Assembly: GCF_944390845.1 (NCBI RefSeq) | Contig: NZ_CALXRM010000019.1 | Location: 1 to 50,213, forward strand | Direction: 5' to 3' | From: an uncultured Brachyspira sp. | Lineage (GTDB): Bacteria; Spirochaetota; Brachyspiria; Brachyspirales; Brachyspiraceae | DNA: 50,213 nt | In this document: positions 1 through 50,213 of the stretch, piece by piece | Numbering within the stretch: the stretch's first letter is position 1 | How the letters are laid out: every line of letters begins with the position of its first letter | Notes under the pieces: model-generated | Database searches by the model: none | What the model saw: the letters and a program-made list of their open reading frames with translations, nothing else | What the model was told of the DNA's origin: nothing | Program-made: the position numbers and the translations under genes

Positions 1-98
1 AAATCTTAAAATCATTTCAAAAAATCTTAAAATCATTTCAAAAAATCTTAAAATCATTTCAAAAAATCTTAAAATCATTTCAAAAAATCTTAAAATCA
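1..98. repeat. 21-bp tandem repeat array
   Basis: About 4.7 near-identical copies of a 21-bp unit (aaatcttaaaatcatttcaaa) run from the first base to about 98, where the last copy diverges into unrelated sequence. The period is exactly 21 bp, seen from the atctt core at 3, 24, 45, 66 and 87. The array may extend left of the window. There are no unique spacers, so it is not CRISPR. The unit is a multiple of three, but I see no start signal or open frame that makes it coding. It may be a length-variable locus of the VNTR kind. Confidence 0.93.
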
Positions 99-100
99 AT

Positions 101-602
101 TAGGATTATTCTTAATAATTAGAATCTTTCTTGAAAATTAGTATGGTCTTGATATTAGGATACTCTGAATTTTTTTTAAATTTGTCAATTTTTATGTTGT
201 TATTTTACAGACACATACTCTCTTAGTACTTCATCAAATAACCTTATATCTTTGATAGGCTCAGATGCGATTTGCAAAAGTGAAAATGTAAACTTAGAAC
301 TATAAATCATACTAAAGATTATGATATAAATTATTAACTTAAATATAAAATATAGCCTTTCAAAACGTATCAAGAATATATTTTTATCAATACAATAGCT
401 AAAAAATTTTTCTCGCTATAAAAGACTTTTTTCGATCGCAAAAGAAATGGTGAATTGTCAAGCAAAGTGTTAGACTTGTGTCACTTGAAAAAATAAAGAT
501 ATAAAAAATAAAAATGTAACTTTATTTTTTAAGTTTAAGAAGGTATATTTGTTTAGGATTATTATTATAAATTAGAATATTATATTCTTTCTTGAAAATT
601 AA
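101..602. repeat. Pair of about 45-bp direct repeats (101-143 and 554-602)
   Basis: Both blocks read ttaggattatt, then an AT stretch containing attagaat, then ctttcttgaaaatta. The second carries a few extra bases (attat) in the middle. They bracket the degenerate REP2 copy at 167-560. This could be an old segmental duplication or the trace of an insertion. Divergence between the blocks argues against a recent target-site duplication. Confidence 0.7.
167..560 (+). repeat. REP2 dispersed repeat, degenerate copy
   Basis: The left end (gaattttttttaaatttgtc) matches the left end of the copies at 22595, 45890 and 50152. The middle (tgcaaaagtgaaaatgtaaa, then aaatcatactaaa) matches 22664-22700. The right end (ggtatatttgtttagg) matches the promoter spacer of the two better copies. 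The GC-rich hairpins of the other copies are lost and extra sequence is present. The terminal promoter has decayed: the -10 position reads attatt. It lies upstream of the plus-strand gene at 817. Confidence 0.6.
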
Positions 603-9697: not shown

Positions 9698-9870
9698 AAC
9701 TCAAATTTTCATAAAAACATATTCTATATTAAACAATTTATACACTTCTATTTTTATAAATTATAATATATGAAATAAATGTAAGATATTAATAAACCTT
9801 ATGATATTTACATAACCAAAAGAAAGAAATATTTTTACAAACTTAATAATTTTTAGTATATAATATAGCT

Positions 9871-10569
9871 ATGAATGAAATAATTATAGAATACAAAAGA
9901 ATAAAAAATATATACATAAGAGTGAAGCCAGATTTAAATATATATGTAACTGCCCCAAAAAGAGTTACTAAAAAATACATATATGAACTTATAGAAAAAA
10001 GAAAAGATTGGATAGAAGAAAAGAAAGAAGACATAAAGAAAAAAAGTATTTATGATATAAGCAAAAAAGAATTAGTTAGCGGTGATGAAATTTATTATTT
10101 AGGAAGAAGATATTTATTAAAAGTAGTAAAAAGCAGAGAAGAAAATATTATATTAGACGGAAAAATGATGTATATGTACGTTAATATAAAAGAAAAAGAA
10201 GAATTTAAAAATAGCGATATAAGGAGAAAGCATAATTTACTTGATATATGGTATAAAAAAGAGGCTTTAAAATTATTTGACACACTTTTAAAAAAATACT
10301 GCAGTATAATGAATTTAGAGATTAACAGTTTCACAGTAAAAAAACTTAAAAGTAAATGGGGCTCATGTGATGTTATAAAAAAGCATATTACATTTAATTC
10401 GGAGCTTATGAAATATCCTCAAAGTGCTGTGGAATATATAGTAATTCATGAACTAGCACATTTAATAGAGGCTAATCATAGTAAAAGATTTCATAATATA
10501 GTAAGCCTTTATATGCCTGAATGGAAAAAAGAAAAAAAGATATTAGATACATTTTTTAATAATTTATAA
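9871..10569 (+). CDS. YgjP-like metallopeptidase (DUF45)
   Basis: This is a 232-residue protein of the YgjP/DUF45 family. The zinc motif is His193-Glu194-Leu-Ala-His197 in VIHELAHLIEANHSKRF, with the third ligand probably His203 in the NHSKRF segment. The family hallmark KLKSKWGSCD, just before the active site, is also present. The N-terminal part (RIKNIYIRVKPDLNIYVTAPKR) is the usual strand-rich lead-in. Members are predicted zinc proteases related to SprT/WLM; the substrate is unknown. It is cytoplasmic, with no signal peptide. The start ATG lacks a strong Shine-Dalgarno. Confidence 0.9.
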   Translation: MNEIIIEYKRIKNIYIRVKPDLNIYVTAPKRVTKKYIYELIEKRKDWIEEKKEDIKKKSIYDISKKELVSGDEIYYLGRRYLLKVVKSREENIILDGKMMYMYVNIKEKEEFKNSDIRRKHNLLDIWYKKEALKLFDTLLKKYCSIMNLEINSFTVKKLKSKWGSCDVIKKHITFNSELMKYPQSAVEYIVIHELAHLIEANHSKRFHNIVSLYMPEWKKEKKILDTFFNNL

Positions 10570-12220: not shown

Positions 12221-12417
12221 ACGCACGGTAAATCAAATTTTTCATATAATAAAAATTTTAATTCAAATAAATCTATCTTTTTAGCTTCGCTCTACGTGCG
12301 GTAAATACACTCTAAATTTAATTTAAACTTGGGCGGGTGTTATCAATTCTTTAAAAACATAAAAGAAATAAAAAAACAACGATATCAAATTATATTAATA
12401 AGGATAGAGGGCGGGGA
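12221..12417 (+). repeat. REP1 dispersed repeat, copy A
   Basis: Four landmarks in fixed order define this ~195-bp element: CGCACGGTAAA (12222), then CGTGCGGTAAAT (12295), then AAACTTGGGCGGGTG about 25 nt on (12325), and AGGGCGGGGA about 75 nt further (12407). The same order and spacing occur at 12561-12763 and 24598-24791. The GGGCGGG blocks stand out strongly in DNA this AT-rich. No coding frame is apparent. Function is unknown; it could be a non-autonomous mobile element or a structured RNA. Confidence 0.75.
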
Positions 12418-12644: not shown

Positions 12645-12763
12645 GGAAATGCATTTTAAAGTTAATTCAAACTTGGGCGGGTGCTGTAATTTCTAATTAG
12701 ATTATTTAAGGATATATATGTATTAAAATATCAAAAATTATTCATTAAGTATAAAGGGCGGGA
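12561..12763 (+). repeat. REP1 dispersed repeat, copy B
   Basis: Landmarks are TTACCGCACGC (12561), TTTACCGTGCGG (12633), CAAACTTGGGCGGGTGC (about 12668-12684) and AAAGGGCGGGA (12753). It matches copy C base for base over most of GCATTTT-AAGTTAATTCAAACTTGGGCGGG (quoted here in parts). With copy D it makes an imperfect inverted repeat of about 315 bp centred near 12605. Confidence 0.75.
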
Positions 12764-21253: not shown

Positions 21254-22594
21254 ATGACATTAGAACAAAAAGATTTAAAATATATATGGCACCCTTGTTC
21301 TCAAATGAAAGATTATGAGGAACTTCCTCCGATCATCATAGACAGAGGAAAAGGAATTTATTTATACGATAAAAACGGAAAAGAATATATTGACATTGTA
21401 AGTTCTTGGTGGTGCAATTTACTTGGACATTGCAATGAAAAAATAAATGAAAATATTAAAGCACAGCTTGACAGACTTGAGCATGTTATATTTGCAAATT
21501 TTTCTCATGAAGGTGCTATTAAATTATGCGAAGAACTTATAAAAATAATACCTGAAGGATTAACTAAATTCAATTTTTCTGATAATGGTTCTTCATCAGT
21601 AGAAGCTGCATTAAAAATGGCATTTCAATATCAGCATCAAATAGGAAATACAAAAAGAACAAGATTTATCTGTTTTACGGACGGTTATCATGGTGAAACT
21701 ATTGGTGCATTATCCGTTGGAAGCTTAGACCTATATGCTAAAATATACAAACCAATGTTAATGGACACAATACATATAGAAGCTCCTGATTGTTATAGAT
21801 GTAAATACTGTAAAAACAGAGAAACTTGCCAATGCGAATGTTTTGAAGATGCTGAAAAAAAGTTTGAAAAATATTCTGATGAAATTTGTGCTGTTATAGT
21901 AGAGCCTTTACTTCAAGCAAGTGCCGGAATGAGAATATATCCTCCTCTATACTTAAAAAAATTAAGAGAGCTTTGTAATAAATATGATGTAGTTTTTATA
22001 GTTGATGAAATAGCTACAAATTTCGGACGCACAGGAAAAATGTTTGCATGCGATCATGCCAATATTACTCCCGATATAATGTGTATTTCAAAAGGCTTAA
22101 CAGGTGGGTACATGCCTATGGCAATAACTATAACTACAGATAAAATATATAATGCCTTTTATGCTGACTATAATGAAGGCAAGGCTTTTATGCATAGTCA
22201 CACTTATAGCGGAAATCCTCTCGGCTGTTCTGCTGCTTTGGCTGTACAAAAGATTTTAAGAGAAGATGATATCATAAATAAAACACAAGTCAGAGCAAAA
22301 TATTTAAATAATAAATTAAAAGAAAAATTACTTGATCACCCAAACATAGGAGAGATTAGAAATATAGGTCTTATCAATGCTATGGAATTAGTTACTGATA
22401 AAAATACAAAAGAAGGTTTTGATTCTAAACTTAGAATGGGTTATCAAATATACAAAAAAGCACTTCAAAGAGGACTTTTATTAAGACCTTTAGGAAATGT
22501 AATTTATTTCAATCCGCCTTTGATAATCAATGAAGAAGAAATAGATAAGGCTGTTGATTTATGTGTATCTTCTATAAATGATATACTATACTAA
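21254..22594 (+). CDS. bioA: Adenosylmethionine-8-amino-7-oxononanoate aminotransferase
   Basis: A 446-residue class III PLP aminotransferase making 7,8-diaminopelargonate. The PLP lysine is Lys280 in CISKGLTGGY. The IVDEIATNFGRTG segment binds the cofactor and SSWWCNLLGH lies near the substrate site. A Cys-rich stretch at about 180-198 (CYRCKYC to CQCEC) occurs in a subset of BioA proteins and may bind a metal. The ATG follows AAAGGAAC. bioF and genes for pimeloyl supply are not in the window. The stop codon abuts a REP2 repeat, which ends the operon without an ordinary terminator. Confidence 0.95.
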   Translation: MTLEQKDLKYIWHPCSQMKDYEELPPIIIDRGKGIYLYDKNGKEYIDIVSSWWCNLLGHCNEKINENIKAQLDRLEHVIFANFSHEGAIKLCEELIKIIPEGLTKFNFSDNGSSSVEAALKMAFQYQHQIGNTKRTRFICFTDGYHGETIGALSVGSLDLYAKIYKPMLMDTIHIEAPDCYRCKYCKNRETCQCECFEDAEKKFEKYSDEICAVIVEPLLQASAGMRIYPPLYLKKLRELCNKYDVVFIVDEIATNFGRTGKMFACDHANITPDIMCISKGLTGGYMPMAITITTDKIYNAFYADYNEGKAFMHSHTYSGNPLGCSAALAVQKILREDDIINKTQVRAKYLNNKLKEKLLDHPNIGEIRNIGLINAMELVTDKNTKEGFDSKLRMGYQIYKKALQRGLLLRPLGNVIYFNPPLIINEEEIDKAVDLCVSSINDILY

Positions 22595-22882
22595 GAATTT
22601 TTAAGTTTGTTATTTTTTACTCAACTTTTTCCCGCCGCATACGCTCTGCGGACTTCGTCAAAGTTGCAAAAAGTGCAAATGTAAAATTAGTACTAAATCA
22701 TACTAAAATTGTTTTACATGTAATATAATTTATTAAATTAAAGCCCAAATGCAGTCTTTCGCCGAAGGCGGGCTGTGCCTGCTTCTTTGGGGCACCAAAA
22801 GAAGTGGGGTGCGGGGCAAAGCCCTGCAGATATTTAAATTTAAAAAATTATTTTTGACAAAGTATAGTTGTTTAGGTATAAA
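22595..22882 (+). repeat. REP2 dispersed repeat with outward promoter, copy 2
   Basis: This ~288-bp element begins on the base after the bioA stop. Left part: AATTTTTAAGTTTGT, then CCCGCCGCATACGCTCTGCG, matching the window's right end almost exactly. Middle: hairpins CGCCGAAGGCG and CTTCTTTGG/CCAAAAGAAG. Right part: GGGGTGCGGGGCAAAGCCCT plus GCAGATAT, shared exactly with 46130-46159, then the promoter. I see no open frame of note. The GC-rich blocks contrast sharply with the surroundings. Confidence 0.85.
22854..22882 (+). promoter_or_regulatory. Outward promoter at the REP2 right end
   Basis: TTGACA (22854-22859), a 17-bp spacer, and TATAAA (22877-22882). This is the best sigma-70 match near the oligopeptide-binding protein gene, which starts about 100 nt downstream. 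The same layout is kept in the copy at 46182. Confidence 0.75.
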
Positions 22883-24597: not shown

Positions 24598-24791
24598 ACG
24601 CACGGTAAATGAATTTTTATATATAATTAAATTATATTATTAATCAATTTATATTGAAAATTATTTTTACCGTGCGTTAAATGCATTTTTAAGTTAATTC
24701 AAACTTGGGCGGGCGTTCTAATTTCTGACTAAGCTATAAAGATAATGAAAGCAAAAAATCATAATTTAAATAAAAAGAATAAAGGGCGGGA
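24598..24791 (+). repeat. REP1 dispersed repeat, copy C
   Basis: The cleanest copy. ACGCACGGTAAA (24598) is an inverted match to TTTACCGTGCGT (24666-24677), giving a 12-bp stem with a ~56-nt loop. AAATGCATTTTTAAG and TTCAAACTTGGGCGGGCG follow, and AAAGGGCGGGA closes it at 24781-24791. It lies 10 nt after the oligopeptide-binding gene and may act as its transcript end. Confidence 0.8.
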
Positions 24792-45199: not shown

Positions 45200-45832
45200 C
45201 TATTTATTAATTTTACATATATTAGTAAAACCAGCAGTAGGAACTCCTAAACCTCTTATAAGCCTAGCCCAATAATTAACCTGTGCCGCAGTGGAAGCTA
45301 ATATTAATATAGCACGCTCTGAATACTCTTTTTTTACTTCTGTGATTAATTCTTCGGATATTATTACAGGCGTTTTCGTTATAGTTGAAATATATTTTAA
45401 AGCAATCTTTTCCTTATTTGACATAGTCGGGCAGGAATCTATATCTTTATTTTGTAAATATTTTATTTCTTCTTCGGTTACATTTTCTTTATCATATTCA
45501 AAACTATTCATATCTATACAAAACGGACATGCCACATCTATTGAAATCTGTATCCTTATAAGTTTCAAAAGCCTTTTAGGTACTTCTTTATCATCATGAG
45601 TTATGAGTGCCTCCATTACACCCGAACTTATTGCAGTTTTAGGATTCCAAGCCAAAATCTTTGGAAGAAGTAAGTCTTTTTTCACTTTCTTTTTAGCTAT
45701 CCACATAGGCAGTTTCAAAAAGAATGGTATTTTCTTAGGCGGATTAATGTAAGCTTCTTCTGAACTTTTGAAGTAATTATCTTTAGTACTTTGTATATCA
45801 AAATTTATATTGTCCATTATTAAATTATCCAT
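45200..45832 (-). CDS. Carboxymuconolactone decarboxylase family protein
   Basis: A 210-residue protein of the CMD/AhpD-like fold. The CxxC pair is Cys102-Cys105 in VACPFCIDMNSFE, where AhpD-type peroxidases carry their active dithiol; the usual downstream His is replaced by an Asn/Ser stretch (MNS). The C-terminal helix AAQVNYWARLIRGLGVP is typical of the clade. An N-terminal extension of about 80 residues, including FFLKLPMWIAKKKVKK, is longer than in AhpD. It is probably a thiol-dependent antioxidant enzyme; the specific reaction is unknown. No clear ribosome site is visible. Confidence 0.85.
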   Translation of the reverse strand: MDNLIMDNINFDIQSTKDNYFKSSEEAYINPPKKIPFFLKLPMWIAKKKVKKDLLLPKILAWNPKTAISSGVMEALITHDDKEVPKRLLKLIRIQISIDVACPFCIDMNSFEYDKENVTEEEIKYLQNKDIDSCPTMSNKEKIALKYISTITKTPVIISEELITEVKKEYSERAILILASTAAQVNYWARLIRGLGVPTAGFTNICKINK

Positions 45833-45889
45833 TTTGAATTATTATATTATTATTAATTTTTATTTTTATTAATAAAATTTATATATACT

Positions 45890-46210
45890 GAAAATTTTTA
45901 AGTTTGTCAACTGATAGACTTTATATAAAATTATCTACTTTTTTCTGCACAAAAAAGCAGCTATATCCTCGACAAGCTCGGATACGCTTTGCGAAAACGC
46001 AATTGCTAGAACTTTATATTTTAAGAATATGTATTAAATATGTGGTATAAAACCCTAGTTTTAGGTAAAAAATGAAGTTGTTTTGGTTCTTTTATACCAA
46101 TACCGAAAGGTACCTACTCGGTAAAAGAACTGGGGTGCGGGGCAAAGCCCTGCAGATATCTAAAATTAAAAAAAATTATTTTTAACAAAATATAGTTATT
46201 TAGGTATATA
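45890..46210 (+). repeat. REP2 dispersed repeat with outward promoter, copy 3
   Basis: The left end AAAATTTTTAAGTTTGTCAA matches the other copies. The middle has diverged, but keeps a hairpin at the same place (GTTCTTTTATACC with GGTAAAAGAAC in place of CTTCTTTGG/CCAAAAGAAG). The right end GGGGTGCGGGGCAAAGCCCT plus GCAGATAT is exact, followed by the promoter. The remainder of the gap 45833-46387 is plain AT-rich DNA. Confidence 0.8.
46182..46210 (+). promoter_or_regulatory. Outward promoter at the REP2 right end
   Basis: TTAACA (46182-46187), a 17-bp spacer nearly identical to that of copy 2, and TATATA (46205-46210). It faces the TPR gene at 46388, giving a leader of about 170 nt. Confidence 0.65.
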
Positions 46211-46387: not shown

Positions 46388-48217
46388 ATGAATAATATAA
46401 GTAAATACTTACAAGAAATTGATGAATATATACAAAATCAAAACTATGATGATGCTTTTAATTTATGCAGCAATATTTTAAATAATATTGACCCTAATAA
46501 TATAGAAGCTATATTTAAAGCCGGATACTGCTCTTATAAATTAGACCGCTACGATATAGCAATGATGTATTTTTTAAAAGCCATTTCATTAGAAAAATCT
46601 AGTGTAAATAAGGCTATGTATAAATATTATATGGGAAGATGTTATGACATATTCGACTCATTAGAAGAATCATTGGAATGTTTTGAAAGTGCATATAAAT
46701 TAGACAGCACAAATAAATATTATTCTTTATGGTTAGGCATTACCTATGCTAAAATAGGAACTAATGACAAATATTACAGTATAGCATTAAGATATTTATC
46801 AAAAGCAGTAGGCATAGAGGATCATTTAGTATATAGATATGTAGGATATTGCTACATTCAATTGAAAAATTATAATGATGCTGTTGAATATTTAAAAAAA
46901 TCTGTACAATTCAAAGATGATGATTATTTAAGCCGTTATTATTTGGGAAATACATATTTTCTTCTTCAAATATATGATAAGGCATTGGAACATTTAAGTG
47001 AATCTGTAAAATTAAAAGATAATGAATTTGATACTTGGTTTACTTTAGGGCTGCTATATAAAGTTATAGATGAGGAAAGTTTATCCGAAGAATGCTTTGA
47101 AAAGGCAAGAGAAATAGCTATAAGATATGATAATGATATAGATTATGAATTAGAATGCTTTATAAAATTATCAGAAGTACAAGAACATGAATATTTAAAC
47201 TATTTATATCTTGGAATATGCTATGCTAAAACAGAAAGCTACAAGAATGCTATACATTATTTATTATCATCTATAGAAATAAATGAAAAAAACAATAATG
47301 AAAATAATTATTTGGCATATTATTGGATAGGATATATTAATTACATAGACAGCGAATATGAAGAAGCTATAAAATATTTAGAAAAATCAATAAAACTAAA
47401 TAATGATGAAGATAATTATTTAATATCATTATGGCTTGGAGATTCTTATTTAAAAATAGGCAATCATAAAAAAGCATTATTTTATTTGAAAAATTCTATG
47501 GATCTTAAAGACAATGAATCTGAAACATATAAATTGATGGCTAAACTATATTTAGAGATGGGGCAAAAAGATAAACATCATGAATATATGAATCAGTATA
47601 AAATATTATTAAAGCAGGAAAAACAAAAAGAGAAAAATCATAATTTACATCTGAAGAAGATGAAAGAAGATTATAATAACTATTTCAAAACATTCTCATA
47701 CAAAAATACAGCCTCAGCATCTACTGAAGTTATAAAACCACAAAAAGTAGAAAATAAACAGCATGTAAAAATGATATACAATACTATGTTAGGCTTTTGT
47801 GATAATAATACCAAAACTAATAGAAATGATTGTGATTCAAAGAAGAAAGATATTAATAACTTTTTTAATATATTATTCCAAGATATAGAAAAGTCAGATT
47901 TATATCATTTATATTCTTCCAATACAGAAAAAAAGCCTTATTTATATTTTGATTCTTTTAATATAGATAATTTCCTATACTATAAAGAGATAGTAAAAAA
48001 AGCTATAGAAAAGAATTTGGAAAATAGTAAAGAAATATATTATTGTGATGTTATAGATAATAATGATAAAGAAAATATAAAAAGAATAGTCGATAATATA
48101 GAAAATGCTTTTGAATACACTTCTGTTTGTATATTAAATTTAATGAAATCTTATTATAAAAATTATGATATAGAGCTTTATTTTATATTGATGAAATTAA
48201 TGGAAAATTATTTATAA
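46388..48217 (+). CDS. Tetratricopeptide repeat protein
   Basis: A 609-residue protein with about eleven TPR units over residues 1-405 (for example YYMGRCYDIFDSLEESLECF), then a Lys-rich helix (about 400-430) and a C-terminal domain of about 180 residues with Asn/Asp-rich helices that I do not recognise. It has no signal peptide and no membrane segment. The ribosome site is weak (AAGTGAGATT). Its promoter is probably supplied by the REP2 copy upstream. It is similar in plan to the TPR protein at 42453, but the tails are not alike. Confidence 0.87.
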   Translation: MNNISKYLQEIDEYIQNQNYDDAFNLCSNILNNIDPNNIEAIFKAGYCSYKLDRYDIAMMYFLKAISLEKSSVNKAMYKYYMGRCYDIFDSLEESLECFESAYKLDSTNKYYSLWLGITYAKIGTNDKYYSIALRYLSKAVGIEDHLVYRYVGYCYIQLKNYNDAVEYLKKSVQFKDDDYLSRYYLGNTYFLLQIYDKALEHLSESVKLKDNEFDTWFTLGLLYKVIDEESLSEECFEKAREIAIRYDNDIDYELECFIKLSEVQEHEYLNYLYLGICYAKTESYKNAIHYLLSSIEINEKNNNENNYLAYYWIGYINYIDSEYEEAIKYLEKSIKLNNDEDNYLISLWLGDSYLKIGNHKKALFYLKNSMDLKDNESETYKLMAKLYLEMGQKDKHHEYMNQYKILLKQEKQKEKNHNLHLKKMKEDYNNYFKTFSYKNTASASTEVIKPQKVENKQHVKMIYNTMLGFCDNNTKTNRNDCDSKKKDINNFFNILFQDIEKSDLYHLYSSNTEKKPYLYFDSFNIDNFLYYKEIVKKAIEKNLENSKEIYYCDVIDNNDKENIKRIVDNIENAFEYTSVCILNLMKSYYKNYDIELYFILMKLMENYL

Positions 48218-49135: not shown

Positions 49136-50149
49136 TTATTTAAATATTAAAGAAAGTATAAATACTATTATGATAGTTGTCAAACCCTGAACCAATGTAA
49201 CACCTGTTTGACATTTATAAGCCTGCTGAGGGGTCATATTAGAGAATTGAGAAACTACCCAGAAATAAGAGTCATTAGCATGTGATACTGTCATAGCACC
49301 AATAGCCATTATTACTAAAACTTTTTGTATCTCTGAAGTAAATCCTAAAGTACCCATTAAAGGAAGCATCATAGATGAGGTTACTATCATAGAAACAGTT
49401 GAAGCCCCCATAGCTGTTTTTAATAACATAGCAATTATAAATGGAAGGAAAACTCCTATATTAAATTGAAGCAAAGAACTGCTTAATATGTCAGCAATAG
49501 GCAAAGCTTTTAATATTTCACCAAAAGAACCGCCTGCTCCAGTAATTGCCAATATAGAAGCTGAATTTACTATACCTTCAGATATAATAGATAATATTTC
49601 ATCTTTATTCACTTTTGTTAGAAGTGTCATAGATAAAAATATTCCAAGCAAAAGTGCTATAATAGGTGTTCCTATAAAAGAGAAGAAAGTTTTTACTGCT
49701 CCATCTCCAAAAGGTGCTGAAGGGAAATCAGCTATAGACTTTAAAGCTATTAATACTATAGGAAGAAGTATAGGAGAAAATGAATGTAAAGCTCCAGGAA
49801 GTTTACCATATTTATCCATCAAATCATCAACATTATCTTCAGTATTAGCATCTATATATATTTTGCTTGCCACTTTTTTAGCATAGATAATAGAAGCTAT
49901 TACAGAAGGTATTGATACAAGAAGTCCAACTAAAATAACTAATCCTAAATTAGCACCTAAAGTTCCAGCCATTGCTATAGGGCCAGGTGTAGGAGGAACC
50001 AAACAATGTGTAGCATATAATCCTCCGCTTAATGCAGTACCCATAACAGCCAATGATATTTTTGATCTTGAAGCTAATGCCTTTGATATAGGTGATAAAA
50101 TTACAAATCCTGAATCGCAGAATACCGGTATTCCAGTTATATATACCAA
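49136..50149 (-). pseudogene. GntP family permease, N-terminally truncated
   Basis: 337 residues of a gluconate:H+ symporter (GntP) family permease. Conserved parts are present: GIPVFCDSGFVIL at the very start, HCLVPPTPGP at about 48-57, and the terminal MTPQQAYK region. Family members are about 440-450 residues, and the GIPVFFDVGF segment normally lies near residue 110, so about 100-110 residues (three membrane segments) are missing. The frame opens with a TTG directly after an in-frame TAA (50158-50156) and there is no ribosome site. The homologous part ends where REP2 sequence begins (about 50152). It could be a genuine truncation or an assembly join at a repeat. Confidence 0.65.
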
Positions 50150-50151
50150 AA

Positions 50152-50213
50152 ATTTTTAACTTTGTCATTTTTTTAGTCAACTTTTTCCCGCCGCACACGC
50201 TCTGCGGACTTCG
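50152..50213 (+). repeat. REP2 dispersed repeat, partial copy at the window end
   Basis: Runs from AATTTTTAACTTTGTC through CCCGCCGCACACGCTCTGCG to the last base. It differs from 22596-22656 by only a handful of bases. It continues beyond the window, in the same orientation as the other copies. Confidence 0.85.

What the first reader, a model, noticed from the sequence alone, without database searches (positions are those of the whole stretch)
22595..22882. REP2: a dispersed repeat that carries an outward-facing promoter
Two separate copies (22595-22882, 45890-46210) end in a sigma-70-type promoter with the same 17-bp spacer (TTGACA/TATAAA and TTAACA/TATATA), each 100-180 nt upstream of a plus-strand gene (oligopeptide-binding protein, TPR protein). 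A decayed copy sits upstream of the gene at 817 and a partial copy ends the window, in the same orientation. The element may be a portable promoter that rewires genes as it spreads.
Basis: partly seen in the sequence, partly recalled or inferred. Interest (0 to 1): 0.75.

Follow-up and report, generated by a model that had tools for sequence, protein, structure and literature searches.

The report
Brachyspira mobile repeat with promoter-like ends
The repeat is a small transposon remnant, hundreds of copies strong in the spirochaete genus Brachyspira, moved by an IS630-type transposase; both of its ends look like ordinary outward-facing promoters, but most copies sit behind genes rather than in front of them, so there is no sign that it rewires genes on a large scale.

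Summary
The window, from a Brachyspira genome, has two full copies (22587-22880, 45884-46208), a decayed one (about 173-557) and one cut by the contig end (50142-50213). The element is an IS630-derived MITE. It is about 220-570 bp long, with imperfect 27-bp terminal inverted repeats, a TA target duplication and tandem copies that share one TA. A relative genome has a precise empty site. A decayed IS with the same two ends and a DDE_3 transposase lies in Brachyspira sp. G79. The right end occurs 291 times in this genome, in 22 of 26 Brachyspira genomes and in none of 270 other spirochaete genomes. Both ends, not only the right one, read outward as TTGACA-N17-TATA. The terminal TA, the duplicated TA and two flanking bases make the -10 box, as in the Correia 'Black' promoter. 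TTGACA-N16/17-TATAAT is also the house promoter spacing here. Placement argues against the 'rewiring' idea: ends face a codirectional gene less often than intergenic chance, convergent gaps are enriched about 4-6-fold, and orientation in tandem gaps shows no significant bias (25:16). Verdict: a new member of a known kind; promoter activity is plausible but unshown.

The parts
22589..22878 (+). Complete MITE copy 1 (left end to right end), interior of two GC-richer hairpin regions
   Evidence: ends defined by the empty site in G024
22587..22588 (.). TA target duplication, left of copy 1
   Evidence: empty site GATATAC-TA-AACTAA in G024 versus GATATAC-TA-[element]-TA-AACTAA
22879..22880 (.). TA target duplication, right of copy 1; bases 3-4 of the -10 box
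22587..22613 (-). Left 27-bp end; reads outward (-) as ATAACA-N17-TATA(GT); its TAA at 22592-22594 is the stop codon of the aminotransferase gene 21254-22594
22854..22882 (+). Right end: TTGACA (22854-22859), 17-bp spacer, TATAAA (22877-22882)
45886..46206 (+). Complete MITE copy 2 (TA duplications 45884-45885 and 46207-46208)
45884..45910 (-). Left 27-bp end, perfect copy; reads outward (-) as TTGACA-N17-TATATA, 51 bp from the minus-strand ORF 45200-45832
46182..46210 (+). Right end: TTAACA (46182-46187), 17-bp spacer, TATATA (46205-46210)
173..557 (+). Decayed MITE copy about 260 bp upstream of ORF 817
   Evidence: nhmmer E=2e-14
50142..50213 (+). Left part of a copy cut by the contig end
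   Evidence: nhmmer E=2.7e-14; left end with 4 mismatches
9834..9860 (+). Unpaired left-type end (3 mismatches), TTTACA-N17-TATATA, ending 10 bp before ATG 9871; remnant or look-alike native promoter

Best explanation
The repeat is a non-autonomous IS630 (Tc1/mariner-type) element, a MITE. Shown by sequence: imperfect 27-bp terminal inverted repeats of two types (L and R), TA target duplication, tandem copies joined through one shared TA, a relative genome with the empty site, and an IS630-type element with the same L and R ends. Inferred: the transposase of that IS binds the ends and moves the MITEs in trans, inserting at TA, preferably within TATATA. Both ends happen to have the form of the host's sigma-70 promoter, TTGACA-N17-TA, completed by the duplicated TA and two flanking bases. 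Some copies in front of genes can therefore probably start transcription outward (inferred, not shown). Copies survive mainly where that and the insertion itself do little harm, between convergent genes and just after stop codons.
For: Copy number, spread and genus restriction. Element structure, 49 and 53 complete elements in the two sampled genomes, 27 of 27 close tandem junctions sharing exactly 2 nt. Empty site with TA duplication. IS with the same ends: L116 537-1592, HTH-type N-terminus, DDE_3 over Pfam's cut-off. IS left and right ends at contig termini of G000 and G024, as expected of an unassembled multicopy IS. House promoter spacing: sense against antisense 133:64 (N16) and 91:45 (N17) in G000, 64:35 and 79:32 in G007, no excess at N15 or N18. 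Placement.
Against: No intact transposase is assembled in any of the 29 genomes searched; the only DDE_3 match is in a decayed copy. No transcript data are available for Brachyspira here, so promoter activity is unshown. Conservation over the 27 bp does not single out the hexamers. Only one empty site was resolved to the base; site 2 relatives lack the element but are too diverged for an exact junction.
Confidence: 0.9

Rival explanations
1. Portable promoter: the element is kept and spread because its right end drives downstream genes, rewiring expression.
For: Both ends match the house promoter with constant 17-bp spacing. In right ends within 250 bp of a codirectional start the hexamers have fewer mismatches than in others (0.038 against 0.061, p=0.13).
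Against: Ends face codirectional genes less often than chance, divergent gaps are poorest in elements (3 of 87 and 3 of 52), right and left ends face gene starts about equally. The hexamer difference is not significant.
Confidence: 0.12
2. The element works mainly as a 3'-end or transcript-shielding module: its structured interior ends or processes transcripts, which explains its place after stop codons and between convergent genes.
For: Convergent gaps enriched (odds 6.1 and 4.2, p=1e-6 and 2e-4). Interior more structured than shuffles (z -2.9 and -4.1). Several copies start within 10 bp of a stop codon.
Against: Intrinsic-terminator scan finds only one weak site in copy 1 and none in copy 2. 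The placement is equally explained by loss of harmful insertions in promoters.
Confidence: 0.2
3. REP/ERIC/BOX-like repeat without a transposon origin, or a family of structured RNAs.
For: High copy number, intergenic, hairpins; no Rfam family in it.
Against: Terminal repeats shared with an IS630-type element, TA duplication, empty site.
Confidence: 0.02

Closest known systems
Correia repeat enclosed elements (CREE, nemis) of Neisseria
   Same: Genus-restricted short element with ~26-bp inverted repeats, insertion at TA, 100-250 copies, -35 box and part of the -10 box in the end with the -10 completed by the site (the 'Black' promoter; PMC2649163)
   Different: Unrelated end sequences (no TCAGGACAA or CCGGTACGG end); mostly 5' of genes in gonococcus (71 of 113), whereas here mostly 3' or between convergent genes; here a related IS630-type element is found
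IS630-family insertion sequences (bacterial branch of Tc1/mariner)
   Same: DDE_3 transposase, HTH N-terminus, TA duplication, about 1.06 kb, terminal inverted repeats
   Different: The MITEs carry no transposase gene; the one complete IS seen is decayed
Coxiella QMITE1
   Same: 300-400 bp MITE with predicted sigma-70 promoters on both strands (PMC5896051)
   Different: 2-3 nt duplications of variable sequence; transcription shown by RNA-seq there, not here
Pneumococcal BOX/RUP/SPRITE repeats
   Same: Multi-copy intergenic repeats, sometimes inserted into one another (PMC10969869)
   Different: Different sequence and architecture; compared from literature only

Membership tests
MITE | Short non-coding element with terminal inverted repeats | tested here: met
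   49 and 53 complete elements, most 220-430 bp, L and R ends 18/27 identical
MITE | Target-site duplication and empty site | tested here: met
   Exact TA duplication against G024; tandem copies share 2 nt
MITE | Ends shared with an autonomous element | tested here: met
   L116 537-1592 in Brachyspira sp. G79; IS ends in G000 and G024
MITE | Moved in trans by that transposase | not testable with these tools
   Needs a transposition assay
IS630 family (of the partner IS) | DDE_3-type catalytic domain | tested here: met
   PF13358 over cut-off, E=4.8e-10, positions 80-139 of 146
IS630 family (of the partner IS) | Complete DDE/DDD triad in an intact ORF | tested here: inconclusive
   Only a copy with stops and frameshifts was available
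IS630 family (of the partner IS) | TA target duplication | tested here: met
   Inferred from the MITE empty site and the TATA at both IS ends
Correia element | Correia end sequences | tested here: not met
   L and R ends lack the CCGGTACGG and TCAGGACAA ends given in PMC2649163
Correia element | -35 plus partial -10 in the end, completed on insertion | tested here: met
   TTGACA-N17-TA | TA | NN
Correia element | Majority of copies 5' of genes | tested here: not met
   Depleted upstream of genes

The most novel reading that the evidence does not exclude
Promoter form is a selected property of the ends, not a coincidence. The L and R ends agree at all 10 hexamer positions (TTGACA, TATA) but at only 8 of 17 spacer positions, and both match the host's preferred spacing. 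The element might need transcription from its ends for transposition or survival, and could thereby seed a genus-wide set of near-identical promoters.
Probability: 0.12. Interest if true: 0.65.

Novelty: new member of a known kind. Interest (0 to 1): 0.38.

Why it matters
About 250-290 copies, by my estimate roughly 2% of this genome, of an apparently unreported MITE break the assembly and fill Brachyspira intergenic regions. It is an independent Correia-like case with double promoter-like ends, in another phylum and with the opposite placement bias. It therefore offers a test of whether MITE promoters are used or merely tolerated. Naming it would clean up annotation and strain comparison in a genus that includes pig pathogens.

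Tried and rejected
Rfam: only a tRNA. Searching for an intact transposase by protein, by Pfam family and in GTDB contigs gave only decayed copies in Brachyspira sp. G79 and fragments at contig ends. Idea that unpaired ends are domesticated promoters: 21/44 against 43/164 with up to 6 mismatches (p=0.009), but this is confounded by native promoters that resemble the ends; with up to 4 mismatches 17/43 against 41/149 (p=0.14), so dropped. Better-kept hexamers in front of genes: not significant. Cassette-like mosaic of left and right interiors: one dominant family, no clear reshuffling by k-mer clusters. Literature: no Brachyspira MITE paper in the held library; Siddique 2011 on Correia promoters is not held.

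Full report
Observation. The two full copies, their right-end promoter-like hexamers with 17-bp spacers, the decayed copy and the truncated copy are all there. With the ends defined properly, the copies are 22587-22880 and 45884-46208, each including one TA on both sides. The window is contig C19 of a 3.43-Mb, 133-contig genome. The genus is Brachyspira: genome G015 of the same genus is Brachyspira sp. G79, matched by its contig coordinates.

Abundance and range. The right-end 27-mer TTGACAAAATATAGTTGTTTAGGTATA occurs 291 times with up to 3 mismatches in this genome (153 forward, 138 reverse; reversed-pattern control 0). It occurs in 22 of 26 Brachyspira genomes and in none of 270 other spirochaete genomes. 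The left end TATACTRAAAATTTTTAAGTTTGTCAA occurs 252 times.

Anatomy. Read outward, the left end is TTGACAAACTTAAAAATTTTCAGTATA, so both ends have the form TTGACA-N17-TATA. They agree at 18 of 27 positions: all ten hexamer positions and 8 of 17 spacer positions. In 826 kb of the own genome there are 49 complete elements (21 RL, 20 LR, 5 RR, 3 LL; all but two 218-426 bp), in G007 53. Every close tandem junction seen, 15 in G000 and 12 in G007, overlaps by exactly TA. About three quarters of free ends are followed by a further TA, a preference for TATATA-like targets. Elements are GC-richer (32% against 27%) and the two window copies fold better than shuffles (z -2.9 and -4.1).

Mobility. At copy 1 the relative G024 (92% identical flank) has GATATAC-TA-AACTAATA where the window has GATATAC-TA-[element]-TA-AACTAATA, a clean TA duplication. 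The insertion lies in the last codons of an aminotransferase gene. In G024 the gene ends CTA AAC TAA; here it ends CTA TAC TAA, the stop being supplied by the element. At copy 2 the eleven relatives examined lack this insertion, but the gap is too diverged to place the junction exactly.

Partner IS. In Brachyspira sp. G79 a 1056-bp element (L116 537-1592) has the left end with one mismatch and the right end with three. Between them lie an open 79-aa stretch with weak helix-turn-helix matches and a DDE_3 match above Pfam's cut-off. It is decayed by stops. In G000 and G024, 20 and 10 matches to the IS right end lie at contig termini. IS left ends, with a perfect L repeat followed by an ATG and a related N-terminus, also lie at contig termini. 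This is what a multicopy IS that the assembler could not cross would leave (inference).

Promoter question. In front of genes, with elements masked, TTGACA-TATAAT with up to two mismatches is about twice as common in sense as in antisense at spacers 16 and 17 in both genomes, and not at 15 or 18. The ends therefore match the host's own promoter form. The spacing is fixed: 157 of 161 ends with intact outer motifs have 17. As in the Correia 'Black' promoter (PMC2649163), the -10 box is partly supplied by the target. But the whole 27 bp is conserved, not just the hexamers, which is what a transposase-binding repeat would show. No transcript data were available.

Placement. Right ends face a codirectional gene in 20/56 cases (null 56%, p=0.004) in G000 and 27/63 (null 53%, p=0.13) in G007; left ends in 16/42 (p=0.03) and 14/50 (p=0.0005). 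Convergent gaps hold elements far more often than other gaps: 18/74 against 22/437 in G000 and 18/48 against 29/230 in G007, p=1e-6 and 2e-4. Divergent gaps are poorest (3/87 and 3/52). In tandem gaps the gene start is faced by R 25 times and by L 16 times (p=0.21). This is the reverse of the Correia pattern and speaks against a general rewiring role. Individual copies can still matter: copy 2 lies in a divergent gap with a perfect left end aimed at the gene starting at 45832 and a right end aimed at 46388. Gene calls are ORF-based, so small genes are missed. The G007 sample was drawn around elements, so its null is less clean than that of G000.

Conclusion. An IS630-derived MITE family of Brachyspira with Correia-like promoter-form ends. 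It works like a Correia element in structure but is not one by sequence or placement. I found no description of it in the held literature, which is not proof that none exists.

Noticed in passing
L116:537-1592 (Brachyspira sp. G79, NZ_JQIU01000008.1): Decayed IS630-type element with the same ends as the MITE; a second, more diverged copy lies about 11 kb away on the same contig.
   Followed up: yes
G000:C13 near 28497, G007 L216 near 9297, G004 L106 near 1795: Same right junction in front of an orthologous gene in three species, but the G004 copy has a different interior: independent insertion at the same TA or exchange of interiors between copies. A similar case is G008 L089 against G018 L098.
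   Followed up: partly
window 9834-9860: Unpaired left-type end ending 10 bp before the ATG at 9871; possible domesticated end or native promoter that resembles it.
   Followed up: partly
window 1-105: Exact 21-bp tandem repeat AAATCTTAAAATCATTTCAAA at the contig start.
   Followed up: no
window 12303-12355, 12647-12699, 24679-24731: Another dispersed repeat containing AACTTGGGCGGG, 75-89% alike in three intergenic places.
   Followed up: no
L311 (G000:C79) 1-115: Inside the IS left end, TTGTCA-N17-TATAAT lies a few bases before the transposase ATG, so the inner part of the repeat may serve an inward promoter as well.
   Followed up: no
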